64,000 nt of DNA from Schoenoplectus triqueter (lineage: Eukaryota; Streptophyta; Magnoliopsida; Poales; Cyperaceae): NCBI GenBank assembly GCA_964058805.1, contig CAXKVV010000142.1, forward strand, positions 1-64,000, in the 5' to 3' direction. Both the position numbers and the translations under genes were made by a program. Below are positions 2,391 to 56,799 of this stretch, in pieces (position 1 is the first letter of the stretch; every line of letters begins with the position of its first letter). The notes under the pieces were generated by a model. That model searched no databases. It was not told the DNA's origin and saw nothing but the letters and a program-made list of their open reading frames with translations.

Positions 2391-2581
2391 TTTTTTTCTT
2401 ATTTGTTTTTTCAACTTCAGTTTGGATGCAAGCTCAAGTCTCCACAACTACAAGTATTGTTGAAAAGCTTATTCCTTTGCTTGATGTAAGAAATCTCCAC
2501 AACCACAAGTATTTAAAGTAAATTATAACTTGGATGTATTCTTTTTTTTTTCTAATTTTTTTTATTTGTATGCATAATAGA

Positions 2582-3085
2582 ATGGAGGTAGAGGCCATCA
2601 CTGAAGAAATAGAGTCAACGATTACTCCTGTATCAGTCAAAAATGTAAAATCTCCAGCATGGTCTCATTTTACAAAATTTATGGAAGACGATATCATCAA
2701 GGCTAAATGCAATTACTGTGGAAACAAATACATGGCTGATTCAAGGATAGGGACCACTAACATGAACCGACATATCCAATCATGTAAGAAGCGAGCTCGT
2801 ACTAGTGATGAGATTGAGGGAGGATCATGTGGTAAACGAATAGATCAAAATGTCTATTGTGAAAAACTAGCTCGAGCCGTCCTACTTCATGGTTATGCTT
2901 TCATGTGGGCTGAACACGAAGGTGATAGTGATATTCATCTTTATTTAAATGAGAATGTCCAGGTTATTTCTAGAAATACTATGAAATCTGAGTGTTTAAA
3001 ATTGTATCATACCAATTTTATCAGCAGTGGCACGCGATATATTGAGCATACCTATCACGACCGTTGCATCAGAATCTTCTTTTAG
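2582..3085 (+). pseudogene. BED zinc-finger, hAT transposase-like N-terminal fragment
   Basis: The open frame from the ATG at 2582 encodes about 167 residues. A BED-type zinc finger is visible near residues 23-69: an aromatic WSHF start, a KCNYC pair and a later NRHIQSC pair. It is followed by a stretch of the hAT/RICESLEEPER type (CEKLARAVLLHGYAF, then EHEG and a SRNTMKS motif). In that family this region leads into several hundred residues of DDE catalytic core ending in a hAT dimerisation domain. Here the frame stops at 3085 and no catalytic core was found downstream. An acceptor-like 'gcataatag' just before the ATG suggests an upstream leader intron. It is either a decayed hAT transposase or a short domesticated BED protein; decay is more likely. 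Confidence 0.55.
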
Positions 3086-5334
3086 TATTGGAGGTCGGAT
3101 TTTAAACAAATGAAGAAGTCGTCTTCTACCAGAAAATTCGGAGGCATTGATCACCACCCGCAGTTGGTTATTTGGTTATGAATGTATGTACATCTTTGCT
3201 TATTTCACTCTTTCTATTGTAGAAACATATTTATATCACTCTTTTTGCTGTTTTATTTTTATTAGCTTATGGTTCCGAGGATACCGAAGGCAATAACTTT
3301 GTGGGAGTGGATGTCAGCTTAACCGAACTGCCCCAATCTATTCTGCCTTCATCTTCTCATGTTTGGTAAGTCCCTTGTTATATATCTCATGGGCTGTTCT
3401 CTGCAACTTTTGCCTTCTGACCGTGATATGATGCATTTTCCTTTATATATAGTTGGTATTCAAATCTGATCAGTGCATTAATTATCATTTGAGTGTACAC
3501 TAACTAGAAAGGATAGCTCAAGATTCATTGCTACCGTTTAATACTTTGCCCTTGATGAATGCTAAATTAACTGACTGTTGAATCTGATCTGGAAAGAAAA
3601 TTTAGATATGTTGTCAAATGGAACAGTGATGAAGAAAGAGTTATCAAAAATAATAATAAACAAAAAGGAAACAAAAGTTGCATTTTTTATGTTACACGTT
3701 GGAGTAATTGATGATAAAAGAGTTGGACAAAAAGTCAAAAACACAAAACAAAGACCTACCACCTAATTGACTAAATTCAACATTCATTATCTCCAAATCT
3801 TACATCTCCATGGATAATGCTGAAATATTGTGCAACCTTATAGAACTGAATGAAATTGGATAATGCTGAAATATCGTGCAACCTTAAAGAATTGGGTCTT
3901 TTATGCATTTTCAATAAAACTGAATGAAATTTTAATTATACAGATTGTTATGCGATATCAACATGCGGGCTCGATTGCACGGTGGGTAGGTTTGTCTGTT
4001 TGTAGGTTTGTTGGTTCTAAACCTTATTTTTCTTTTTTTGTTGTTGTTGGAAGTTGTTAGGGGTTTTTGTAAAGCTTATTGAGTTATTCTCAATTGGAGC
4101 TTGTTTGTCTGTTGTGGGTCTGTTTGTCTGTTATAAGGTGTTTTTATTTTAATTTGTTATGGAGACTTATTATAGTTAAATTGTTCATTGGTTTTGGCTA
4201 TGATTTAATTCAAGCTCACCTGGAATTGTAAGAGCTTTCATTGGTTCTGAGATGATTTTGAATTATTAGTTGCTTATGGTTGCATGTAAAATATCACAGG
4301 TTCCAACCGCAATGACATTGGTTGCGGTTGAAAACTGAGCTACGCAATAGAAATATCAAATCCACAAGGAATCAAGGATGCATAGGGGATCTTTTTTTTA
4401 CGCGTTTTCAGAAAATCTGGGCTAGAGGGACCATATAATTCGAATTGAAGCTGGCACTGTACAACTACTCGTTTCTAGCTCCTCGAATCGTCAGTGAAAA
4501 AGTTATTATGGCTTATTATCAACTACTCTTTTGCCTCTACTCGTATCTGTAATAGTTGTACAAGATTAATTACATGAAAACTGTTTATAATTTGTATGAA
4601 ATTAATTGTGAAACTCCCCGTGAAAATGCATTGAATTGATCTTCTCGTACTGCAATATTATAATACCATTAATTACACTTGCATATGACATTTTTATGAA
4701 CCGGTATATAAAGCCTGACAAATTTACATCCGAAGCTACTGGTTTTCTATGTGGATATGTTGGCTGAATTGAACAGAAAGTTCCTACAACAGCATTAATT
4801 GTGCATATGAATGATGTCAATGCATTTTTATTTGAAGCTATAGATGATTTCATGAGTTACATGATCTCTCGGTAATTAGCATCATTATGGATGATTTCAT
4901 TTCGAAGATTCTGATTGTGGTACCTCTGTTTCAATTTAACACATTAGTTAAGACTTAAGAGCTCAAACTTAATTTGAGGATTTTTTTTGAAGAATAACCA
5001 TATTCATGATCTTTTTTAAATGATCATATTCTCGAGTTTTTTAAATAAACGGTGATCAAATTTTTAGTTTTGATTTTTATTAATTATCCCCTCAAATCGT
5101 CTTATCAATTCTGATCTTTCATTACAGAAATTTGATTAATTGATGTTGGAGTCAAGGATCATATTCAAAGGGTTAAAATTGTCAAAATCCTTCAAAATCT
5201 AAACAAAAAAAACACAATAAAAGTGATCGATAACACAATGGTGTCATAAAAACTATAATAGGATCAATATGTATTTTTCTTATTTTAAATTCTAATTATA
5301 GTTCAATTGTATTTTAATATTTCAAAATTAGATC
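3086..5334. other. Spacer with one possible exon, otherwise nothing
   Basis: Around 3268-3366 an open frame lies between an acceptor-like 'tttttattag' and a donor-like 'tttggtaag'. It reads with an SEDTEGNNF motif and matches no family I recognise; it could be a leftover downstream exon of the BED gene. The rest is AT-rich with no supported gene. Confidence 0.3.
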
Positions 5335-5689
5335 AGGTCGGGTCAGATCGGGTCGGGTTTCGGGTCATCTCGGGTTTCGGGTCATTCGGGTTTGAGTCGG
5401 GTCGGGTTTTAGGTCTTCCAATCTCGGGTCATCTTGAGTTTTGGTTGTCTCGGGTTCGGGTCGGGTCAGGTTTCTAATTATCTAATCTCGGGTTTCGGGT
5501 CGTTCGGGTTCGGGTCAGGTCGGGTTTCGGGCACTCTAATCTCGGGTTGTCTCGGGTTTCAGGTTGTCTCAGACCGGTTCGGGTCGAGTTTGGGTCAGTT
5601 TGACTTTCTGAAAAAATCGGGTCGGATCGAATTCGGGTCCGAGCGAGTCGGAGGGGTTTTTCGGGTCGGGTCAGATTTTGCCACCTCTA
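5335..5689. mobile_element. hAT-like terminus rich in CGGGT words
   Basis: The words TCGGGT and GGGTCGGGT recur many times over about 350 bp. The block ends in 'ttttgccacctcta', which on the other strand reads TAGAGGTGGCAAAA, a typical plant hAT/MITE end. No matching left terminus or 8-bp target duplication was found. Whether it belongs to the BED-domain gene at 2582 is unproven. Confidence 0.4.
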
Positions 5690-14554: not shown

Positions 14555-15427
14555 CCCCCTCTTAAACTTAATTATTTTTTTATCCTTCATGCTAATCATC
14601 ATTGAACTTCTTCATAACTCATAGCGAATAGCGACGCCACCCATTAACGGCTTCTTCCTGATTCATTGATCTAGGAAATTTAAAAAATCAATCGTGGTTT
14701 CATCTCATATGCCATCCAATTTGACTGACTCTTCAGGTCATGTATATATGAGATTCACACCCACACCGCATTTTTCATGTGGCTCCACACCACATCTTCT
14801 CATGATTTTCACACACTTTCAGCAAAACATCTCATAATGTTGCTAGTTCTCTTATCCTGGCACTCATTGCACAGGCTATCATGAGTCATTGCTCATGTCG
14901 GCTTCACTCACCGATTTTTTGAAGACCACTGGCAAAAATTTCACCACGTTTTTGTAACATTCGCTGCTTGATACATAGCTCTCATGATTGACAAGTTTTC
15001 CTTCTTTTTTTCTCTTACATTGTTCGTGTGACTCGAGAGAACCAGCAAGCTCGTCGACTGTGAGCTTTGCAAGGTCATTTGACTCTTCTATCACGCACAC
15101 AACATTCTCAAAACTGCCGGTTAATGATCTCAAAATCTTCTTCAACATCTCGCCATTACGAATGAGTTGGTTCACCACGGCTTGTACACGTGTGATGTAG
15201 TCAGATACACTTTCTGACTCCTTCATCTCCATGCTCTCCAACTCGCCACGAAAAGTTTGGAGATGCACTTGCTTGACTCGGTCGGTTCCTTTGAACACTT
15301 TTTCTAAAATGTCTCACGCTTCTTTTGAAGTACTTGCACCAGCAATCTTCTCAAAGCCCGACTCATCAACGGCACAGAACAACATGTATAGTGCCGCATT
15401 ATCCTTCGATCGCGCCTCTTTCAACGC
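14555..15427 (-). pseudogene. Truncated Copia gag downstream of a lost 5' LTR
   Basis: The minus strand carries a second gag relative. It reads ARSKDNAALYMLFCAVDE, then a TGA in place of an expected Trp codon near 15308-15310, then the 139-codon frame 14879-15298 with DRVKQVHLQTFRGELESM, DYITRVQAVVNQL, ILRSLTGSFENVV and AIEE-like VIEESNDL. These are UBN2 gag landmarks. The N-terminus and 5' LTR are missing; the sequence gives way to a foldback MITE near 15440. It is inactive. Confidence 0.75.
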
Positions 15428-28386: not shown

Positions 28387-29595
28387 GTTAGCTATCAATT
28401 TTGTTTATCTTTCCCTTTACTTGTGCACATTTTCTCGTAGCATTAAGGTTCTCCCGTTCTCGCATTGTGTGATTTATTACTAGATCTGGATTACATTTTA
28501 GTACATTTGGGAATTTTGATTTGTTAAGCAGGTAACTTTTTTATTCTTTTCGTGTAATTAATTCAGTGGAGATCCATAAACTGATGGTCGGTTGTTTTTC
28601 CTACAATTTTAAATTAAATTGGCCAAAACTTCTTTCAAAATCGAGATTTAATTTGGTTTAGTTCCCACGATATTTCCTACTTGTTGTTTTTCTTTTCCTA
28701 TCGGTGCCAAAGATGTCTTATTTTATTTGTTAGTTTTAGTTTATGGTATCATTCTGATATCTCTGTCGTGCAATGCCAATTTATATCTTTTCATGTTGAT
28801 GAAGAGAAGAAATGATGAAATAACATTGCATCTTTCGAATCTGTTACTATATTTAGTTCGAATGTGTTTTTTATTCGAGTATGAAAGATTGTAGTTTTGA
28901 AATCAAGGATCAGTAGGGATGTCTTAAGAAGAACATAAATAAACATACTGTTTCTTAATCTAGTGTGGAATGCTGATTAAGATTTATTTGAGATGAGTCG
29001 ATTTTTCTCCGGCTTTGAGAATATCTCTTACATTTCTATAATTGCATTCAGACTATTAGATCCAGTATCTCTTTTGGTTGCATTTTACCTAGCAATTACC
29101 CCTTTTGGTGCTATATTCCAAAATTTCCTTAATCTTTGTGTATTCTGAATACATTTAATTCTTTTTTAACTTTTTTCTCTATTCAATTCTTCTGTATCTA
29201 TTAGTAGACAAAATTAGTATATTTCAGTAACTTTGAAAATTTTCAAATTATTTTGTTTCAAAAATTTCTCTATGCTTCCTTTATAAATTAAGAAGTCTAA
29301 CAACACCATAAGATTTCCGGATTTCCTTTTTGTGGAAATGCATGCAATCTCTATTGTTGGATTTTTTTTTATATCTACTGTCTACATGCATTATAACAAC
29401 TGATGCATATATGCTAAAATTAAACCATTTTTTAAGAGTCTTTATCTTTATTTTAGGATAACATTCTCTGTACTTTTTAATTTGTTGAGCTGGCATATTT
29501 CCATCCCGTGACAGCTAACTTATGCTTTTTTTTTCCTCCAGATTTCAATTACTCAGTTCTACTTGCATGTGAATCGGTCCTACACAATTCCAATC

Positions 29596-32379
29596 ATGGC
29601 TTCCTCTTTTGCTGCTGCAGGTTTCTTGCCCACAAACACCCCAATCAAGCCCATGAAAAATTCCTTTCCAGACAAACCTGATGTAATATCTCTCAATGCA
29701 GTACCAAAACCCAACAAAACTGATACAAAAGCATCCATGAAAGCTCAAGCGCAAACCATCCCCAAAATAAATGGCACCAACCCAGGTGTAAAACTCCCTT
29801 TTGAAAATGTCCTCTTAGATGAAGAACCACATGAGAAAAGTTCCTCTCCATTGGATACTCCAATCCCATCCTCTCCATTTCAGATGACACCTTCTAAGAC
29901 CTTCTACAATGCACTGCCAGATTGGAGTGTCTTGTTGGCGGCAATGATGTCTTATATTTTTCTGGCAGCTGAGAAGCAATTTACATTATCTGATTGGAAA
30001 CCAAAGAGACCTGATATGCTGGCAGATGCATTTGGGTTCGGACGCATGATTCAAGATGGGACAGTCTTCAGACAGACTTTCCCGATAAGATCGTATGAGA
30101 TCGGTGCTGATCGTACTGCTTCAATTGAGACCCTCATGAACCATTTACAGGTACAGGATTATAATGGTACCATACAAATTGTTACTGGTATGTCTACAGG
30201 CATGTTACCATAGATGCATAGGAAAAGGGTCTGGTATAAATTTTATGTCTTGTTCTTTAATTCTGATTTCTCTTTTTTGTAGGTTATTCTGAATGCATAT
30301 GAAACTTGCCTGTACATAATTTAAAATGAATTTATACTACTTTTATAAGAATTATATATGCATATAGGAGGATATGGAATATGAAAAAAAAATCATTGAA
30401 AGAAAAAAGTTGTGTAATTTTCGTTACAATTTGCATCAGATTGCTTTTCTTTTTACATCCATAGGATTTTATCTAAAGCCATCAACAGTTAGAGAATTCT
30501 TCTGCAATTGCAACCATAACAGTACAGATCTATTAGAATGCATGAAACAATTCATAGATTTAGTAAGTATGAGTTCATGAAGAAATTATTTCCTACTTTT
30601 TTAAAAAAAAATTAATCAACTTTATGTCATTTCTTTTTATAGGAGACTGCGCTTAATCATGTGAAGATTGCAGGGCTGCTGGGAGATGGTTTTGGTGCAA
30701 CTCCAGAGATGAGTAAGAGAAAACTCATATGGGTTGTCTGTAAAATCCAACTACTTGTCGAACACTATCCCTCTTGGTACATTTACCTACTCGCTGAGTT
30801 ATACAATTTTGTTCCGAAAAGAATACTAAAATTTGCATTTCTGCAACAATTCCATTCTTACTCAAATCCATTTGGAACTAGGACTTGAGATTAACTATTT
30901 TCTGTGCTACTTGTTGATTAACTTGGCTCATTTTACGCCCCTTCTATTGTTTTATTAATTTAGGGGTGATGTTGTGGAAGTTGATACATGGGTTGGTGCA
31001 TCGGGAAAAAATGGCATGAGAAGGGACTGGCATGTGCGTGACCATAAATCCGGCCAGACTATCTTGAGAGCTACCAGGTATTGCACACCTTTTTCATCTG
31101 AGTCTGTCAGCATTACGGCATTTGCATTGGTTACCATATGAACTTTAATTGTTTAATTAAGTGCCAACCAAGCCACAAAAAAAAATCTGAAAAGCAACTA
31201 GCTACATTCACTAAACTATGTTCAAACCTCACATATATCGCAACAAAGCCTTCCTAAGTGCCAACTTTGCTTTTTGAATATTAATTTCTTTTTTGTTTGC
31301 TCATTCAGTGTATGGGTGATGATGAACAAAGAAACGAGACGGTTAGCAAAGATGCCAGAAGAGGTACGGTCTGAGATCGGACCTTATTTCATTGATCGCC
31401 TCGCAATCCGTACAGAGGATGCCAAAAAGCTCCCCAAGACTGAGAAGAAGGATTCCTCAGAACACTCTGTCAGAAAGGGCCTAACTGTAAGTATTTTCTC
31501 ATTTTCTGAATGACAAAAGATATTATATATTCCACATCCAATAAAGACCCTGGACTTTACGTTGAATAAAGATAGCAGTAAGTGCTGAAATTGATCTTTA
31601 GTGAGAGAAGCGTTTTAAATAACTCAAAAATTCCATTTACCAATATGCTGTTGTTATTGTGGAGCAGCCGAGATGGAGTGATCTGGATGTCAACCAGCAT
31701 GTGAACAATGTGAAGTACCTCGGGTGGATTCTGGAGGTGCTATTTCTATACCCCTATTGATCTTGTTTACTATTATTATTGTTTAGATTTATTCTTTCTA
31801 GATAAGTATGATAAGCTTAGTTGAGCGGTCCTTGTACATATTGATTTTGTTATACCCACATGCTTTTATAAATTTGATATATATCACATGCTTGGTTGGT
31901 TAGTTCTGGGTTGTTCTGCCCTTGCTTTGTACCTATATTAATTAATTTCAGTCAAAACTACCATATTGCTTTTTGCATCTACGCCCCTCAGTGCATTGTC
32001 AAAATTTTCCCTGGAAAGCAGCTGATTGCATGTTAAAGTCCATAATTCTTCTCTAATTCTTTGGCAATGATCTCTGTCAATCATCATGAACATTTAATAT
32101 TTTTGGCTTTTTATTGTTTATCCTTACATTTTAGTTTCACTGTTTTTTCAGAGCGCTCCAATTTCAATTTTAGAAAAGCATGAACTGGCAAGCATGACAC
32201 TGGAGTACAGGAAGGAGTGTGGCAGAGACAATGTGCTGCAGTCCCTGACAACTGTGTCTTCTAGTGCTGATTGTTCTGTTGAAGACGGGGTTAGGTGTGA
32301 GCATCTTCTCCAGTTAGAGAGTGGGGCTGAGATTGTGAAAGGATGGACTGAATGGAGGCCAAAGCGGATAGAGGAGTAA
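29596..32379 (+). CDS. FATB: Acyl-ACP thioesterase B (FatB), chloroplast
   Basis: Hydrolyses acyl-ACP in the plastid stroma, releasing mainly saturated fatty acids (palmitate in the housekeeping type) for export. Exons: 29596-30150, 30643-30776, 30964-31077, 31309-31486, 31668-31736, 32152-32379; all GT-AG, 1278 nt, 425 aa. Exon sizes 134, 114, 178 and 69 match other plant FATB genes as I know them. Residues 1-50 form a plausible transit peptide. LPDWSVLLAAMMSYIFLAAE (107-126) is the FatB hydrophobic anchor. Two hotdog domains follow. The catalytic set is visible: Asp334, Asn336 and His338 in DVNQHVNNVKY, then Glu372 and Cys373 in RKECGRD. The ATG at 29596 gives MASSFAAAGF, the expected plastid start; no better ATG lies upstream. 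Positions usually strongly conserved differ here (DAFGFGRMIQDGTVF near 144-158; GWTEW where GRTEW is usual), so substrate range may differ. Confidence 0.95.
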
Positions 32380-35198: not shown

Positions 35199-35394
35199 AG
35201 TACAACACTGTTTGAAATAAACACTTTGAATCCCCCATAAGCATCTTCAACTGCTAGTACAACACTGTTTGAAATAAACACTTTGAATCCCCCATAAGCA
35301 TCTTGGACTACTAGTACAACACTGTTTGAAATAAACACTTTGAATCCCCCATAGGCATCTTGAACTACTAGTACAACACTGTTTGAAATAAACA
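35199..35394 (-). repeat. 57-bp minisatellite in the SRL1 3' UTR
   Basis: Three full units and a 25-bp partial fourth, starting 'agtacaacactgtttgaaat' at 35199, 35256, 35313 and 35370, with exact 57-bp spacing and only a few differences. The unit length is a multiple of three, so the minus strand stays open through all copies (each encoding a VFISNSVV...AYGGFK unit). It lies about 40-240 bp downstream of the SRL1 stop. Confidence 0.9.
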
Positions 35395-35436: not shown

Positions 35437-38350
35437 TCACCTCCAACTCGAAGAACCCCCCAACCTGATCACCTCAGTGCTGGTATCTCTCCGGAACCCG
35501 TCTGACCCAGCACCGGTGTCATCCTTGGGCTGACTTGCATCTCCATACAAATCCTTCAGCTTTTGCAAATTACTTGACACCGTGTCCTTCTTCTCTCCCC
35601 TAAATGGGCTCTCCCTGTGTCTTTCAGGTGGATCTGGCCTTGGACTCCTGCTTCGCCTCGAACTGTACCGATCTCGGTCATAGTCTCTCCTCTCTCTGCT
35701 TGACCGATGGTAATCTCTATCTCTTTCTCTTCGATCCCTCTCCCTCTCCCTCTCCCTCTCCCTCTCTCTATCCTTATCCTGCTCTCGCTCTCTATCTCTG
35801 TCCCGACCCCTGTCCCTAACTCTATCTCTATCTTTATCATCATAACTTCTCTCTCTGTCCCTTTCTCTATCATAGCTCTTTTCCATGTCCCTGTCTCTGT
35901 CTCTGTCTCTGCCTAAAATGGCTTTGCGAACGGGGGATGAGTCACGAGTTGAGGCACGGTGCGGGGCCCGCTGGCCGAAGGACACAGAAAGGGAGGCCTT
36001 GACAGAGGGAGGCCGGCGGGCTGTTGAGTCATCAGAACCCATGCGGGTTGAGTCGCCAGTTATGCCTGAGAGCTTTGTAGGTAGCTTCAGTTTCTCGAGA
36101 TTGGTGGTGATCTGCCGCAACAGTGGGAGGGGTACTCTTGGGAGAAGCGTATCAAAGTAGTACTGCATGCATGAGAGCGAGTACGGTTACATTGAAAACA
36201 ACAGTAACCCAAAATATCTTATTAAAATAGAAACAAATATTGAATAATTAATAGGAAAAAGAAATTTCTTCCTCCAGAACTAATCATATCTGTATGCTTC
36301 GTTAATAGGTTTCCTGAATGTAGTATCACAAAAAAAAAATTGAGCTCAGATAAAATGTTATGAAGCAAATTATAATTTCTCAGGGTCAATCAAGTTCCAG
36401 GTTCTTGGCATGAGATCTAAAAAGATGGAACTGATGGCTGGGTTTGATATTTATCCTCATTTATGATGTTTGAAGCTTCAACCTCAGCTAAATTTGGCAT
36501 TAGCATACAACAATAACAAATCCTTTAATCCCAAATAAATTGAGGCAGACCAGAAATGAAACCCAATCTGAAAGCATAGAGATCAGTGATGGTAATTAGA
36601 AATTTCAAATATATGTATATATATATATATATATTTTCTTTTTTTTGGTTAAAGAAGGTTTCGTCAGGTGGGTTCAGTCTAGGTTACCAAGAGGCGTTAA
36701 GTTCTTTTGTTTCATTTTTTACATCAACAAGGTTCTTTTCCAGTTAAATCCCCCCCCCCCCAATGGACTTTACGTTCACCTGAGTATAAGATCTAGTCAA
36801 GTTTTGTTAATTCAAATTACAGGTTCAGATAAAATTGAGCTCGGGCAGAAACTTGGCTTTGGCACTGCTAAACATGCATGGTAGAAAAGACAAATGTTGT
36901 ATGAGGTGATGACTGAGCAAGTAAATCAATTAAATGCATTATTTTACCACAAAGACATGGGATATTAGTTAGTCTAAGACACCATTCACAAACCTTACTG
37001 AAAACAGTGGAAAAAGATGCAGCCACCTCTCACGGCAACCCCGAAATGAAAACACCATGCCTAGGATCTCAAATATACTATAATCAAAGGGAGTCAAAAA
37101 CTGGTAGATATTGAGACATGTAAGATTGACAGCAGCATGTCTATGAAAAAACATATGATGAAGTATATAAGATCTGCAGTAAAAGGGAGAAAGGGAAGAA
37201 CCAATGAAAAATCTATACCTGGCCAAGGATAAGATCTCGCACATACACTCCCATTGTTGTCATTTTCCCATTTGACCCCGGAGAGAACTCCTGAATAAAT
37301 TTTAAAAAAATGTTTAAACTATCAGAATGAAACATCTTAAATTGGTCATGTAAGAAAAATATGAGCTACCAAAGCAACAGCAAAGGAGAAAGACATTGAT
37401 TACCTCATCATCCTTAATGTAGGGTTCATACCAACCCCACAAGGTCTTTGGTTCAGCCACATATCGTAGATAAAGAAAGCCAACCTGCATATTATGAAAA
37501 AGGAGAAAAAATCACCACAAAATTCTCATGATATTACATTTTCTTCGCTTGATATGAAAAAAAACTACCAGACTCAAGGCTCAGATGCATATGCCATGTA
37601 CTATGTGCACATACAAAAGTCTAAGAATTAAAGATCCAACTTTAAGAATTATTCAAATTGTTGGATCCACCCATGAGCATGCCTTTTACTTCATATAGAA
37701 TTTCATATTCGAAGTTATAGAATGTAGTCAATTGTTGCTAGGCTTTAGCCCAGACATGTCAGGTGACAATAAGAAATACAACAAATAATGCCCAATGCAA
37801 ATGCAGTGAAATATTGGTGCAATTTGCACTGAAACCACTTTTTAAGTAAAGGAAAACACACTAACTGGTCAGGTATGTAAGAACTGGAAGGCTTGATTCT
37901 TCAATAGCTGTTTATCTATTTTGTGGTGATCCTTTAATGATCCATTCAGAATGTCTTTGTTTTCTCATAGAACAGTCTCAGCTGAAGCCAAAGCAAGCAC
38001 AAATACACAAAATAAAGGTAAAAATAATCAGAAAACATAGAAAACAAAAGAAAGGAACTCACTGCTCTGATGTAAGGGGAGTCAGGGTGCTTGAGGAGGC
38101 CATGCATCTGCTTAACAGTAAGCTTCATGGTGAAGAATTTGTAAAGGAGGCAGAATGACGTGGAGGGCCCACGGCAGTTTCCAGTCATCCAAGGCTCCAC
38201 ATGGTCCACCTGGTTGTAAATCTCGTCTATGACTTCATGGTACGTTTTAAGCCGGAACAACTCCTTAAAATAATCACTTGAGAGTATGTTCATGCACAGC
38301 ACCTTCTCCATTAGCGTGTCTATTGGCCTCCCTGATGACTGTATTTCCAT
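35437..38350 (-). CDS. SRL1: PRP38-domain RS-type splicing factor (SRL1-like)
   Basis: Nuclear protein of the PRP38B/SRL1 type, expected to act in spliceosome activation. Exons on the minus strand: 38350-38063, 37484-37404, 37290-37219, 36162-35437; all GT-AG, 1167 nt, 388 aa. Residues 1-170 form the PRP38 domain, very conserved from the first residue ([20 protein letters not shown]; later [12 protein letters not shown] and [26 protein letters not shown] near the exon 3 end). Residues 190-220 hold the family motif [20 protein letters not shown]. Residues about 231-322 are an RD/RE/RS-rich low-complexity domain for protein and RNA contacts, partly encoded by a CTCCCT-type hexamer repeat at 35737-35766. 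The C-terminus carries [13 protein letters not shown]. Length agrees with the Arabidopsis protein (about 390 aa). Confidence 0.93.
36504..36569 (-). mobile_element. Au-SINE-like 3' end in SRL1 intron 3
   Basis: It reads 'acaacaataacaaatccttt', 'aatcccaaataaattgaggc' and 'agaccagaaatgaaaccc', closely matching the copies at 26483 and (complement) 19420. It lies inside the third SRL1 intron. Confidence 0.55.
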
Positions 38351-38918
38351 CTCCGTTTGTAAGTTTTTTCTTGTTCTTTCTATATATCCTTGTTATTTTC
38401 TTCTGGTGGGGAAAGAGGGGGTTCAGTACATCATATAGTGATTAGTCTCTTGAATAAACTAAAAGACAGCACATTAAAAAAGAAGTGTAAAATACAAAGA
38501 CTTGCCTAAATTGTACATGATATGAAGACATGACATTATTTTACATGTTTCTGTAATTCTGTGTGAAACCTTCTCTATCAAAGGGGTCGATTTGGCCTAA
38601 ATTAGAGTTGTTTTGCGCACAAGGTACAACATAGATGGAAAACATAACTAATTTACCAAAACTACGGTAAACTAAAACTACTCGGACATAAACTTGTAAA
38701 ATTTGAGCTCATTGAGGGTTCAACTGCAAAAGCTTTAGAATTTACCGTCCAAATACCCAAATTATATAGCACGAACCCTAACCCTCCGAAATGAGAACTT
38801 ACCCGTTAAAAAGGTGCAATTAGAAACAAATTCAGGCAACATAAAAAAGATATGAGAAGCTTAACGTCGCCATACATTTTTTTTATTATTTTAAATAAAG
38901 AAAGAAAGCGGAACTTAC

Positions 38919-52716: not shown

Positions 52717-55700
52717 TCAAGCAACTGGAACGTTAGGTTCCCCAAGATTAACAAAGGCCTCAGCTCGCATCATTCGCATCATGACAGAATTCCATGAAAC
52801 TAGATGGTCAAAAAAGTTGTTCACATATGCAGATCTATCATCCTGCTCAAAGGATTAAAGTTTCATTATCAGGCAATGCTTATTACATGCCAGTATGTGA
52901 AGAAATTCATGTCTGGTTCTGTGTTTCATAAACCCTCTGAGGGGCAAGCTCTTTTCAACTAAATTTACAAAAAAATAAGTAATTTCCATGACAAACACTG
53001 TCTATGCTCTGATCATAATAGGAAAAAGCTAGACTTAATTTGAAAAAGGTAAGTTTAATGCAAAAGTGGGCCTGTGAGCTTTGCCCTTATTTTCTTTCCA
53101 TCATTGATAACTTATGCAGAATCACGAAGGTTAAGTATTTCTATTACCTTGTAGTCCAGATAATATGCATGCTGGAAAAAAAGGAAACAAGAGTCAATAT
53201 TTGCTATATTATCAAAAAATTGAATATTTTAACTGCAAGAAAGAGACGGTTTTCTCACCTCCCACATGTCCAGGCCAATTATAGGCTGATCAACAGCAAG
53301 AAATAAGACAAATTTAGCAAAATATTAGAAGAAATAGAAATGCAAATATAATATTTCATTAAAAGAAGCTACATTTTGACTTACAATATCACCCCAAACT
53401 AAAGGACAGCCAGCATTTTGAGTTTTCGCCACTCCAAGCTTTCTCTCATTTCTTTTCACTGAGATAAGGAAATCATTAAACTTCAAGTTATGAAAGTTAT
53501 CTAGTAAGAAGAGAGAATTTCATTTGTCACCACATCTGACCACAGAAATTCAATGTCAGGCCATTTCCTTGATTTATAACCCAACAAACAAGAATAGGTC
53601 ACATATATTGAACAAACATGATTTTAATTGTTCTACATCACAAGGATCTATCACTGGGAGAGGTTTGCTGGTCAGATCTGGATAACCTGTGCAAACCGTT
53701 CCGATATGTTTTGGTCCACTCCAGCAGAAATGTTATGTTACTAAACTAAATTCAACCTAGAATATAAAGAGGACTCACAATAAAGCCAGACCCAGCCAGA
53801 ACCTACAACAGAGAGGGCTGCAAGGGTAAATTCATCCCTGAAATTTGTAAAAGACCCAAAATCCTTCTCAATTTGGTGCAACACGCCTCCTTTTGGTAAG
53901 CTGCCCCCTTCAGGTTGCATCGACTCCCAAAAGAAGTCGTGGCTCCATACCTACAATTTTAAAACAGAATAAATATTGTCAAAGTCTGTCTGTCTTAAAA
54001 AGATTCTTCATGTGTCATAGAGTTCACAATTACTTTCTGTCAGTTACTTAGAATTTAGAATAAAAAAATAGCAGGTTTTTTTTTCATGTTTTTGCTGTTC
54101 TCACGCTTAATGTTTTCTTCAAGAAGGATTTCAAAATGCACATAAGGGGTGAGAAGAACATGTGACCCATGGGTGTGCACAAAGAAAATAATTGATGTTT
54201 ACCAGCTAAATCATGAGTGCTGATCCACAAAAACAAAAACATATTTGTCGACTTAACACTACATAGGTAAAAAAAAAAATTTTAAAACATCGATGATAAA
54301 ATTAAAGTCGCTGGGTCGCTCAGAGAAGTGATTCGAAAACATCGATACCATGTTTTATAGGGACCAAAAGTAATTTCTGAAGAGAAGCAGAAACGGATAA
54401 CTAGAGTATTCCAATAAGTATTCCTATATTTCCACTCCTCTTACTCTATCCTCTACTCTCCTCTTCTTCAGACTTTGATTGGAAATACAAGCTAGGGTTT
54501 TACCTCCTACTGCCGAGTTGTTCCCTCCACCATCACTGGCCTCTACCCTCCCGATCTCTGCCACCTCTGACCCCTTGAGTTCTGGCCATCCTTCTCTACT
54601 ACTACTACTCCATTCAAGTTTTGCCACCTTCCAGTGACAGTGATAACAGCGACAGTAATAACACCGGCGGCAGCATTTTGCTTCGTCCCTCTATATCCTC
54701 ATCCCATCCCCAACCACCAACCAGACCTTCAACCCCCAGTCACTCCCCACCACCCACTGCCTGACCCTCCGTCGCCAGCCTCCACCCACCACTCCAACCT
54801 CTTCCCCCTCTCTACTCTCTATTTTTCCCTTTTCCTTTCTTCTCTCGGGTTGAAGAACAAGCATGCATCTCCTCCCTTCGGTGCCAGATCTGAGCGCCTT
54901 AGCCCACCCCTTAGGACACCAAAACTGCTCCTTACCTGCCACTGTACTTTTCATGATGCCTTATCCAAGCACACGGCCTTCAAACCCTAGCTGTCACCAT
55001 CATCGCTGGAATCAAACCCCTCCCTCACATGAGTTTATGAGTAACATATCCTTCTCTTAATCTTGTTGTTACTCTGCTCACCGAGTATGAGCACTTTGAG
55101 TAGCACATTTTTGTGAGCAACCGACCCAAAACCATGTCAACAGCAGCAGAACCAACTCTTAGGTTACGGCGACCCCTGACTCCTCTCCTTATTTTGCCTC
55201 TCAACTCACGCAAAAAAAAAAAGATCCGTTGTTAGGAAAGAGAGTGGAAGGAAATCTTTCCCAGCAGACCACCTGTCTTTGCAACTCAGCCTCTTCTGCC
55301 TCTTCCGTTGGTCCAGTCTTCAGCTCTTCCTCCTCTGCTTCTTATGCCTATCCAGCCACAAATGCGGTGCGCCATGGATTCCTTGGTGGTTGATGTGACG
55401 GAGTTAGAATATTGTTTTCTTTTCTTTTTCTTTTTTAATATTTATGCTTGTATTTCAATCTCATCTGTTTTCTTTTATTTATCTTATACCCAAGCTGTAC
55501 TCTCTTTTTTTTTAATTTGATTTAATGAAATCTCACAGTATGCTTTTAGCGTGCCTACTTCAAAAAAAACACTACACAGGTACCACACCCCCGGGAACAA
55601 AGATACATAAACAAATAAACAAAAAGGATAAAAATGAAAAGAAAAAAACTAACCGAAGATGCTTCATTAAATTCAATCAAGGGACTGCCATTATTATACG

Positions 55701-56799
55701 TGGCCTTAACCATCTCCTCCAATGTGTGCCCATAAAATGGGCTAGTTTCTAAAAGCTTGTTCAGTCTTTCAACATGCTCGTTATGGTGCTTTCCCCAGTG
55801 AATCTCCACTGATCTCTTGCTTATGTAAGGCTCCAAGGCATCCTAAACCAAAATTACAATCAAATTAACAATTAAGTAAGTCAATTTACTAAAGGTTGAA
55901 CATGACCCTGCAAAACATTAAAAACAACACGGTAATAGAAAATGTTCACCCAGATGGACAATGACTTGACTGAGCACAATGGATCAAGAAGACTTCAGTT
56001 CATGTTTTCTAATGTTATATATGACATTTTCTACATTATTTTTGAAAGCAATAAAGTTATTTATAGGTGGTATGTCCAAACACTGATATAATCCACAACC
56101 TTAGGTTCAAAAAAATGTAAGGAAATTGTATTCAACTCACAAGTTTGTATGGTGGTGTAGTGAGGCCATAATAAGCTCTGACTTTACAAGCCCTTTTCTG
56201 GTGGAAAAAAAGAGGAAGAATCTAATTTAGTTCAGTGCAAGAAAACATTCAACCAGGGTAGAAAATTTTTCTTTGATTTTATACATTTAACTGGTTTGTT
56301 CATATAAGGATTGAAATAGTCCTTGAGACAGCACATTGTAACAGTAAATGCATGAACTTTTCCGCTCTTCTTATACAAGACATTTCATCGAGCACTTTGT
56401 AGACGGTGAAACAGGGTACTAATGGTTTTGATAAAGGCGGGACAAATAAACAAAAAGATCAACTGAGTTTCTGAGTTTATTTTCTTTAGTTATTATAGGA
56501 TACTCAAGTACTGATGTAGACAAAATTCAATAAAATCACAGTAAAAAATAAACTACCAAATACCACTAACGAATCGTCACTTCCAATGGCAGAACAGGCA
56601 GATAAACCCAAAAAAAATATGAATTAATGATTGAATGAATAAAAATGGTGGAAAGTGTTGTGTCAGATACCGGATAACAATTTACGGGGTTTAAGGGATT
56701 CGGACTCAATTTAAAGCGATTGGTTGAAACTTTCAAAGAATTAGATGATGCAACGCCACAGCCACACCAGTTCGGCGCCATTACGAGCTGAGAACCCAT
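52717..56799 (-). CDS. FSD3: Fe superoxide dismutase, plastid (FSD3-like), altered site
   Basis: FSD3/PAP4-type protein; in Arabidopsis it works with FSD2 in plastid nucleoids as part of the plastid RNA polymerase. Minus-strand exons: 56799-56671, 56197-56141, 55842-55654, 53950-53779, 53458-53385, 53285-53259, 53171-53148, 52842-52717; all GT-AG, 265 aa. Residues 1-50 are the transit region; the mature part starts near VRAYYGLTTPPY. Metal ligands are all present: His77 (EIHWGKHH), His129 (SHDFFWES), Asp213 and His217 (LDMWEHAYYLDY). QNAGCPL is of Fe type. Two second-shell residues are changed: the gateway Tyr (HHxxY in relatives) is His85 (HHNEH), and the Gln of AAQVxNH is Ser125 (EASSVWSH). 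The C-terminus FVNLGEPNVPVA is the FSD3 hallmark. Identity is firm; dismutase activity is in doubt. Confidence 0.93.
54360..55400. other. GC-richer insert in FSD3 intron 3
   Basis: Intron 3 (53951-55653, about 1.7 kb) is far longer than the others and holds a CT/CA-rich block with open frames on both strands. None matches a family. The composition resembles 42270-42940. It may be a transposon or a captured leader; no terminal repeat was found. Confidence 0.35.

What the first reader, a model, noticed from the sequence alone, without database searches (positions are those of the whole stretch)
52717..56799. FSD3-like Fe superoxide dismutase that has lost both second-shell active-site residues
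All metal ligands (His77, His129, Asp213, His217) are intact, as are the fold and splice junctions. But the gateway Tyr of Fe-SODs (E. coli Tyr34, HHxxY) reads His85, and the metal-solvent hydrogen-bonding Gln (E. coli Gln69, AAQVxNH) reads Ser125. The Mn-type alternative Gln is also absent (QNAGCPL has Ala). Mutating either residue in known SODs changes or weakens catalysis. A protein with both changed but no frame damage suggests selection for something else. FSD3 is also PAP4, a structural partner in the plastid RNA polymerase, so a scaffold-only or altered-redox paralogue is plausible.
Basis: partly seen in the sequence, partly recalled or inferred. Interest (0 to 1): 0.78.

Follow-up and report, generated by a model that had tools for sequence, protein, structure and literature searches.

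The report
Sedge polymerase subunit with disarmed dismutase
In a sedge, a superoxide dismutase that belongs to the chloroplast's RNA polymerase keeps its metal-binding residues but has lost neighbouring residues that the chemistry normally needs, and because the same spot has changed repeatedly in other flowering plants, nature offers a test of whether this subunit is there as an enzyme or as a building block.

Summary
Observation confirmed, interpretation partly supported. Window 52717-56799 (minus strand) is a complete 8-exon FSD3/PAP4 gene (265 aa), by its relatives from a sedge. Rhynchospora and Carex orthologues have His/Leu and His/Ser; Juncus shares the Asn72 change. It is the FSD3 orthologue; the two further copies found in the held, partial genome are pseudogenes, and against them the window copy is under purifying selection. 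Among 119 FSD3 hits, 23 lack Tyr34, 28 lack Gln69, 20 lack both, in about seven or eight events each (Gln69 mostly to Glu). None of 119 FSD1/FSD2-type hits, where named all non-monocots, lost either. Commelinid FSD2/PAP9, the partner, has His for Tyr34 but keeps Gln69, so in Rhynchospora neither polymerase-type FeSOD has Tyr34. Most likely sedge PAP4 is a metal-binding, weakly or abnormally active structural subunit of the plastid RNA polymerase. Activity, metal content and expression were not testable.

The parts
56671..56799 (-). exon 1: start codon and presumed chloroplast transit peptide (aa 1-43)
   Evidence: similar N-termini in Rhynchospora P0001 and Carex P0002; residues 1-40 disordered in the P0001 model; transit peptide not tested by a predictor
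56141..56197 (-). exon 2 (aa 44-62), ending AYYGLTTPPYKL
55654..55842 (-). exon 3 (aa 63-125): ligand His77, His30-eq His81, Tyr34-eq His85, Gln69-eq Ser125
   Evidence: PF00081 hit
55774..55776 (-). codon 85, CAT = His, where Fe/Mn-SODs have the gateway Tyr (E. coli Tyr34)
55654..55656 (-). codon 125, TCG = Ser, where Fe-SODs have Gln69; last codon of exon 3
   Evidence: both C22 pseudogene copies have Leu
53779..53950 (-). exon 4 (aa 126-182 and the first base of 183): Asn72-eq Ser128 (53942-53944), ligand His129 (53939-53941), Trp178
   Evidence: PF02777 hit
53385..53458 (-). exon 5 (to aa 207), includes Ala198 at the MnSOD Gln position
53259..53285 (-). exon 6 (aa 208-216), ligand Asp213 (53268-53270), Glu216
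   Evidence: start set by the orthologous DIPIIGLDMWE
53148..53171 (-). exon 7 (aa 217-224), ligand His217 (53169-53171)
52717..52842 (-). exon 8 (aa 225-265 and stop), FSD3-type C-terminus AEAFVNLGEPNVPVA
54270..55567 (.). about 1.3 kb insert inside intron 3, flanked by near-identical 13-14 base repeats (read by eye), absent from both pseudogene copies

Best explanation
[quoted passage not shown] Shown: in the window protein the ligands, tryptophans and dimer-bridge Glu-His are kept, while Tyr34, Gln69 and Asn72 are replaced by His, Ser and Ser; the loss is shared by the three sedge genera seen, partly by a rush, and the copy is held under purifying selection. Inferred: the protein still folds around a metal, pairs with PAP9 and is needed as an architectural part of PEP, but dismutes superoxide poorly or with altered redox behaviour, because residues that set the metal's potential and relay protons are gone. 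The general rule would be that dismutation by PAP4 itself is dispensable in many angiosperms, and sedges carry that furthest.
For: Intact frame and splice sites. Three sedge genera share the loss; Juncus has Glu at 69 and Ser at 72. Of 143 positions at least 80% conserved in 120 other FSD3 rows, 11 changed in all three sedges, among them 34, 66, 68 and 72; Gln69 fell below that cut-off. Window branch: 7 amino-acid changes against 29 in copy B (binomial p = 0.0003) and 4 against 22 in copy A (p = 0.0005); rough dN/dS 0.15-0.3 on the window branch against about 0.6 on the pseudogene branch, 0.47 pairwise. Loss in FSD3 (23 and 28 of 119) against 0 of 119 FSD1/FSD2-type hits; Gln69 was lost seven times in each of 300 parsimony reconstructions. 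The five best structural matches of the Rhynchospora model are PEP chains: labelled PAP4 in the mustard entries, 'superoxide dismutase' in tobacco and spinach. Literature: the FSD3S isoform of Arabidopsis FSD3 is thought not to act through its SOD activity (PMC6882211, passages); FSD2 overexpression did not rescue fsd3 (PMC6645559, passages); redox-dead TRX z and FLN1, two other PEP subunits, restore PEP (PMC4036507, abstract). Human MnSOD Y34H has the lowest k1 of the human Tyr34 mutants tabulated (0.07 against 1.5) and E. coli MnSOD Q146L or Q146H has under 10% activity (PMC9208312, passages).
Against: No assay, metal analysis, transcript or PEP pull-down for a sedge was seen. In species with an intact site FSD3 does act on superoxide: recombinant Arabidopsis FSD3 is active, its overexpression partly lowered superoxide in fsd2, and OsFeSOD3 overexpression lowered ROS in rice (PMC13140286, abstract). 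Mutant data come mostly from MnSODs, where the Gln sits elsewhere; the same review says Gln to Glu in human MnSOD had a negligible effect. Human Y34H is still fast in absolute terms. All six Gln69 losses outside the rush/sedge clade went to Glu, which looks like tuning rather than decay. The held genome is partial, so another normal FeSOD may exist in this plant.
Confidence: 0.58

Rival explanations
1. Redox-tuned site. The substitutions convert the metal centre into something other than a dismutase, for example iron held reduced, acting as a one-way superoxide reductase or as a redox sensor on the polymerase. The sedge state would be a variant of a site that other lineages tuned by Gln69 to Glu.
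For: Outside the rush/sedge clade all six Gln69 losses are to Glu in 300 of 300 reconstructions, and Phe replaces Tyr34 beside Glu in Fabales with Quillaja and in Malvaceae. Of 23 hits without Tyr34, 20 also lack Gln69. E. coli Q69E and Q69H FeSODs exist as solved structures; that Q69E raises the potential by hundreds of millivolts and loses activity is recalled, not read here.
Against: Sedges have Leu or Ser, not Glu, at 69, varying among genera. The link between the two losses is not established on the tree: 5 of 8 Tyr34 losses on a Gln69-lost background (17.6% of tree length, p = 0.006) or 4 of 7 with two-state coding (p = 0.02), but 2 of 7 if the state at the start of the branch is used (p = 0.36); the independent-pairs test has 5 pairs and is not significant. 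No redox data.
Confidence: 0.2
2. Still a competent dismutase: His85 substitutes for Tyr34 as gateway and proton relay, with water filling the Gln69 space, so function is unchanged.
For: Commelinid FSD2/PAP9 has His at 34 in 25 rows, all with Gln69 kept, so His there is tolerated over long times; in human MnSOD Q143A waters occupy the Gln position (PMC9208312).
Against: The same review reports that Q143A and Q143N cannot sustain wild-type activity, and Y34H k2 below 0.02 against 1.1; PMC5836015 states that mutation of these residues abolishes activity (passages). Both are lost here, plus Asn72.
Confidence: 0.13
3. Ordinary acceleration: rushes and sedges have fast-evolving plastid genomes, and PEP partner proteins drift or co-evolve with them; the active-site changes are by-products.
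For: Stem branch of the Juncus-sedge clade 0.129 and of the window 0.129; the cyperid clade has the largest plastome rearrangement distance and Juncaceae the highest plastome substitution rate in Poales, and rpoB shows positive selection in Poales (PMC11057118, passages).
Against: Several changes lie in the Gln69 neighbourhood while ligands and tryptophans stay; the same residues are lost in legumes, Malvaceae and orchids. No per-site rate model was run.
Confidence: 0.05
4. Unexpressed pseudogene or sequencing artefact.
For: Two pseudogene copies do exist in the genome, in tandem on contig C22.
Against: The window copy has no stop or frameshift, canonical splice sites, 82% and 80% identity to annotated orthologues sharing His85, and far fewer amino-acid changes than the copies.
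Confidence: 0.02

Closest known systems
FSD3/PAP4 of mustard (8qma, 9epc, 8ras), tobacco (8w9z) and spinach (8xzv) polymerase structures
   Same: 65-67% identity of the Rhynchospora orthologue model to these chains, same fold (TM by target 0.86-0.87), same ligands and C-terminus; eight exons as reported for Arabidopsis FSD3 (PMC6882211, passages)
   Different: The five PAP4-type sequences aligned keep Tyr34 and Gln69; sedges have His and Ser/Leu, and Ser for Asn72
FSD2/PAP9 (Arabidopsis crystal 7bjk; Rhynchospora pubera P0259)
   Same: Partner FeSOD of the same polymerase; commelinid FSD2 also has His at Tyr34
   Different: Keeps Gln69 and Asn72 in 119 of 119 rows and in all 25 His34 rows; C-terminal extension; separate clade
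E. coli FeSOD Q69E and Q69H mutants (2nyb/2bkb, 1za5)
   Same: Laboratory changes at the same residue
   Different: Single engineered changes; here the site is Ser and Tyr34 and Asn72 are changed too
TRX z (PAP10) and FLN1, PEP subunits whose redox chemistry is dispensable (PMC4036507)
   Same: Enzyme-fold subunits of PEP that work without their redox chemistry (abstract)
   Different: Unrelated folds; shown by engineered mutants, not by natural loss

Membership tests
Fe/Mn superoxide dismutase fold family (PF00081 + PF02777) | Both domains recognised | tested here: met
   Window exons hit both above cut-off; orthologue P0001 hits both
Fe/Mn superoxide dismutase fold family (PF00081 + PF02777) | Three His and one Asp metal ligands | tested here: met
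   His77, His129, Asp213, His217
Catalytically canonical Fe-SOD | Gateway Tyr34 | tested here: not met
   His85; His in 3 of 3 sedges
Catalytically canonical Fe-SOD | Gln69 (Fe type) or Gln146 (Mn type) bonding the bound solvent | tested here: not met
   Ser125 and Ala198
Catalytically canonical Fe-SOD | Dismutase activity with iron bound | not testable with these tools
   needs protein
FSD3/PAP4 orthologue | Falls in the FSD3 clade, apart from FSD2 | tested here: met
   FSD3 clade of 124 rows with no other row inside, support 97; query with Juncus, Carex, Rhynchospora 97
FSD3/PAP4 orthologue | FSD3 C-terminus without the FSD2 extension | tested here: met
   AEAFVNLGEPNVPVA end, 265 aa
FSD3/PAP4 orthologue | Subunit of plastid RNA polymerase | not testable with these tools
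   inferred from orthology and from the fold match to PEP chains
Pseudogene | Frame damage and relaxed constraint | tested here: not met

The most novel reading that the evidence does not exclude
The PAP4 active site has been remodelled out of ordinary dismutation many times in flowering plants, by convergent routes (Gln69 to Glu, in two groups with Tyr34 to Phe; in sedges Tyr34 to His with Gln69 to Leu/Ser and Asn72 to Ser), and in sedges neither FeSOD of the plastid RNA polymerase is canonical. The polymerase would then hold a metal site used for structure or redox sensing, not for superoxide removal.
Probability: 0.4. Interest if true: 0.8.

Novelty: new variant of a known kind. Interest (0 to 1): 0.62.

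Why it matters
Why the chloroplast RNA polymerase carries two superoxide dismutases is unsettled: protection of the polymerase or architecture. Natural PAP4 proteins without one or both of the residues that normal catalysis is thought to need, in sedges and separately in legumes, Malvaceae, orchids, gingers and wheat relatives, make that testable with existing mutants. It also warns that FSD3 genes named iron SOD in crops may not all be ordinary SODs.

Tried and rejected
Rejected: a second normal FSD3 in the held genome (searches gave the window copy, the two C22 copies and a piece on C262, fetched as L018). The held assembly looks partial (82 Mb; PF00118 hit 3 contigs), so absence of FSD1, FSD2 and MnSOD there means nothing. 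Rejected: a MnSOD-type Gln swap (Ala198). Rejected: error or pseudogene. Coupling of the Tyr34 and Gln69 losses: not established (figures in the first rival). On checking, weakened the coupling result, so I lowered the redox-tuned rival from a draft 0.22 to 0.20. The Fisher tests treat related plants as independent. Codon-based dN/dS with relatives was not possible (no coding DNA of them); the rough ratio uses polarised changes over half the silent changes between window and copy B.

Rows left out: P0003 (a Solanum tandem FSD1/2-type fusion) was removed from the FSD3 count, 120 to 119. The tree (157 rows) used 124 FSD3 rows (the window, these 119, and P0290, P0292, P0294, P0297), 30 FSD2-type rows chosen by me from those, and 3 algal rows; it is a quick search, and Turnera P0112 (a eudicot, long branch 0.447) sits among Poales in it, surely wrongly. 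The tool lists only the best 120 of 3631, 7996 and 638 hits, so counts describe those lists. The 119 rows include unnamed ones. The 108 new rows include algae, oomycetes and bacteria; four lack Gln at 69: P0283 and P0288 are Brassica entries marked partial, P0289 and P0300 read Gly there and have Gln at the Mn-type position. The structure was predicted for the Rhynchospora orthologue P0001 with 50 of the 119 FSD3 hits as alignment, not for the window protein, because a spliced protein is not read letter for letter from the window. Two cryo-EM papers of PEP are not held. Printed reports of this loss were sought; no listed title or abstract beginning described it, but that library lacks most subscription papers and most listed papers were not opened.
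Full report
What is there. The minus strand of 52717-56799 carries eight exons that join in frame with GT-AG introns. With exon 6 starting at 53285 the product has 265 residues and ends in the FSD3-type AEAFVNLGEPNVPVA. Against E. coli SodB (the letters were checked against PDB 1isa) His77, His129, Asp213 and His217 are the metal ligands. The gateway Tyr34 is His85 (codon CAT), Gln69 is Ser125 (TCG, last codon of exon 3), and the MnSOD-type position is Ala198. In addition Asn72 is Ser128 and Ala68 is Ser124. His30, the tryptophans and the Glu-His dimer bridge remain. In a solved FeSOD, Trp122, Gln69, Tyr34, a water and His30 form one hydrogen-bond chain (PMC1618392, passages); the part of Asn72 in that network is recalled.

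Which plant. The best hits are Rhynchospora breviuscula (82%) and Carex littledalei (80%), with Juncus effusus at 68%, so I take the window to be from a sedge (Cyperaceae). The held genome is 82 Mb in 2086 contigs and looks incomplete: the chaperonin family PF00118, which should give more than ten loci (recalled), hit 3 contigs.

Not an error, not a pseudogene, not a paralogue. Rhynchospora has His and Leu at the two sites, Carex has His and Ser (and has lost His30), Juncus has Tyr and Glu and shares Ser for Asn72; Typha is normal. In a tree built without the columns of residues 81, 82, 85 and 125, the window groups with these three (support 97) inside an FSD3 clade of 124 rows (support 97); within it the sedge trio has support of only 33. 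Two further copies lie in tandem on contig C22, both with introns, stops and other damage. Using Rhynchospora and Carex to polarise, copy B has 29 amino-acid changes against 7 on the window copy (7 unresolved), and copy A 22 against 4 (4 unresolved) (binomial p 0.0003 and 0.0005). Introns differ by 18% and 23%, so the copies are not recent. Both copies have Leu at 125, and copy B keeps His at 85.

The wider pattern. Among 119 FSD3 hits the Tyr34 site is Y 96, F 15, H 5, C 2, N 1, and the Gln69 site Q 91, E 26, L 1, S 1; 20 of 119 have lost both, so 20 of the 23 without Tyr34 also lack Gln69. Parsimony on the FSD3 part of the tree needs 8 changes at each site as a two-state trait. In 300 of 300 reconstructions Gln69 is lost seven times: rush plus sedge; wheat relatives; orchids; Zingiberales; Magnolia plus Persea; Malvaceae; Fabales with Quillaja (groups read, with a return to Gln in Vanilla; the orchid branch has support of only 16). 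All six losses outside the rush/sedge clade are to Glu. Tyr34 is lost 7 or 8 times by coding. Whether the two losses are linked on the tree stays open: 5 of 8 Tyr34 losses end on branches without Gln69 (17.6% of tree length, p = 0.006), 4 of 7 with two-state coding (p = 0.02), but only 2 of 7 begin there (p = 0.36), and the independent-pairs test, with five pairs, is not significant. By contrast 119 of 119 FSD1/FSD2-type hits keep Tyr34, Gln69, His30 and Asn72. Where named they are eudicots, magnoliids and water lilies, including legumes and Malvaceae, whose FSD3 has Phe and Glu.

The partner. A search aimed at long FSD2 proteins gave 108 new rows. In 25 of them, 24 named commelinid monocots (a palm, pineapple, grasses, Juncus effusus, Rhynchospora pubera) and one unnamed, the Tyr34 site is His while Gln69 is kept. 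On the tree this is a single extra change: 9 over all rows, 8 of them in FSD3. So Rhynchospora lacks Tyr34 in both proteins (PAP9 from R. pubera, PAP4 from R. breviuscula), and PAP4 also lacks Gln69 and Asn72. FSD2 was not found in the held part of this genome.

Fold. The model of the Rhynchospora orthologue has mean pLDDT 77.8. Residues 1-40 are disordered; the ten-residue blocks around His77-His85 and the 125-129 stretch score 87-92, but the block with Asp213 and His217 only 75. Its five best matches in the PDB are PAP4-type chains of polymerase structures (TM by target 0.86-0.87). Fold retention is thus supported by model and sequence; metal binding is inferred.

How it probably works. Human MnSOD Y34H has k1 0.07 against 1.5 and k2 below 0.02 against 1.1 (nM-1 s-1 as printed), and E. 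coli MnSOD Q146L or Q146H under 10% activity (PMC9208312, passages and table). PMC5836015 states that mutation of these residues abolishes activity (passages). Against this, the first review says Gln to Glu in human MnSOD had negligible effect, though the same change in E. coli MnSOD gave apoprotein. Recombinant Arabidopsis FSD3, with Tyr and Gln, is active in gels (PMC6882211, passages) and was assayed in PMC4321555 (passages). FSD3 overexpression partly lowered superoxide in fsd2 plants (PMC6645559, passages), and in rice OsFeSOD3 overexpression lowered ROS while the knockout is albino (PMC13140286, abstract and section headings; the passages seen cite SOD activity from Arabidopsis). So where the site is intact it probably works as a SOD. 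Yet FSD2 overexpression did not rescue fsd3, and redox-dead TRX z and FLN1 restore PEP (PMC4036507, abstract). I infer that PAP4 is needed for polymerase architecture and that its dismutation is expendable in some lineages; sedges show the extreme state. The repeated choice of Glu elsewhere keeps the redox-tuning rival alive. Fast plastome evolution in the cyperid clade (PMC11057118, passages) is a possible background cause.

Known or new. The family is known. In nine literature searches no listed title or abstract beginning described natural loss of these residues in PAP4, but the main cryo-EM papers are not held and most listed papers were not opened. I rate it a new variant of a known kind.

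Noticed in passing
window 54270-55567: About 1.3 kb insert in intron 3 flanked by near-identical 13-14 base repeats with an A-run at its plus-strand end; absent from both C22 copies. Parts of its last ~290 bases recur at 69-88% identity on 19 other contigs, so it looks like a dispersed non-LTR or SINE-like element.
   Followed up: partly
L016 and L017 (contig C22, about 840.8-842.4 kb and 847.1-849.8 kb): Two tandem FSD3 pseudogenes with introns; in both, the codon aligned to metal ligand His129 reads Cys.
   Followed up: yes
L018 3047-3103 (contig C262): A lone exon-2-like FSD3 piece, 84% identical over 19 residues.
   Followed up: no
FSD2/PAP9 of commelinid monocots, e.g. P0259, P0270, P0264: Beside Tyr34 to His these 25 rows read FVH, FFH or FTH where other FSD2 read FNN, i.e. 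a new His at position 66; possibly compensating.
   Followed up: partly
FSD3 of Fabales and Malvaceae, e.g. P0076, P0104: Phe at Tyr34 with Glu at Gln69 is found in both groups; cotton and legume FSD3 may not be ordinary SODs.
   Followed up: partly
FSD3 of grasses (P0007, P0012), Zingiberales (P0020, P0027, P0035), spinach chain 8xzv_M: His30 or His31 also vary in FSD3 (e.g. Gln, Ile, Tyr, Leu, Ala), while in the 119 rows His30 is invariant and His31 is kept in 118.
   Followed up: no
window 29512-30213 +, 35437-38392 -: Acyl-ACP thioesterase-like first exon (PF12590), and a PRP38-like splicing factor (PF03371, PF12871).
   Followed up: no
window 2522-3085 +, 14879-15313 -: BED zinc finger (transposase-like) and copia-type gag matches.
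   Followed up: no
window 35199-35394 and 5330-5585: 57-base tandem array (3.4 copies, 96%) beside the PRP38-like gene, and a TCGGG-rich minisatellite.
   Followed up: no
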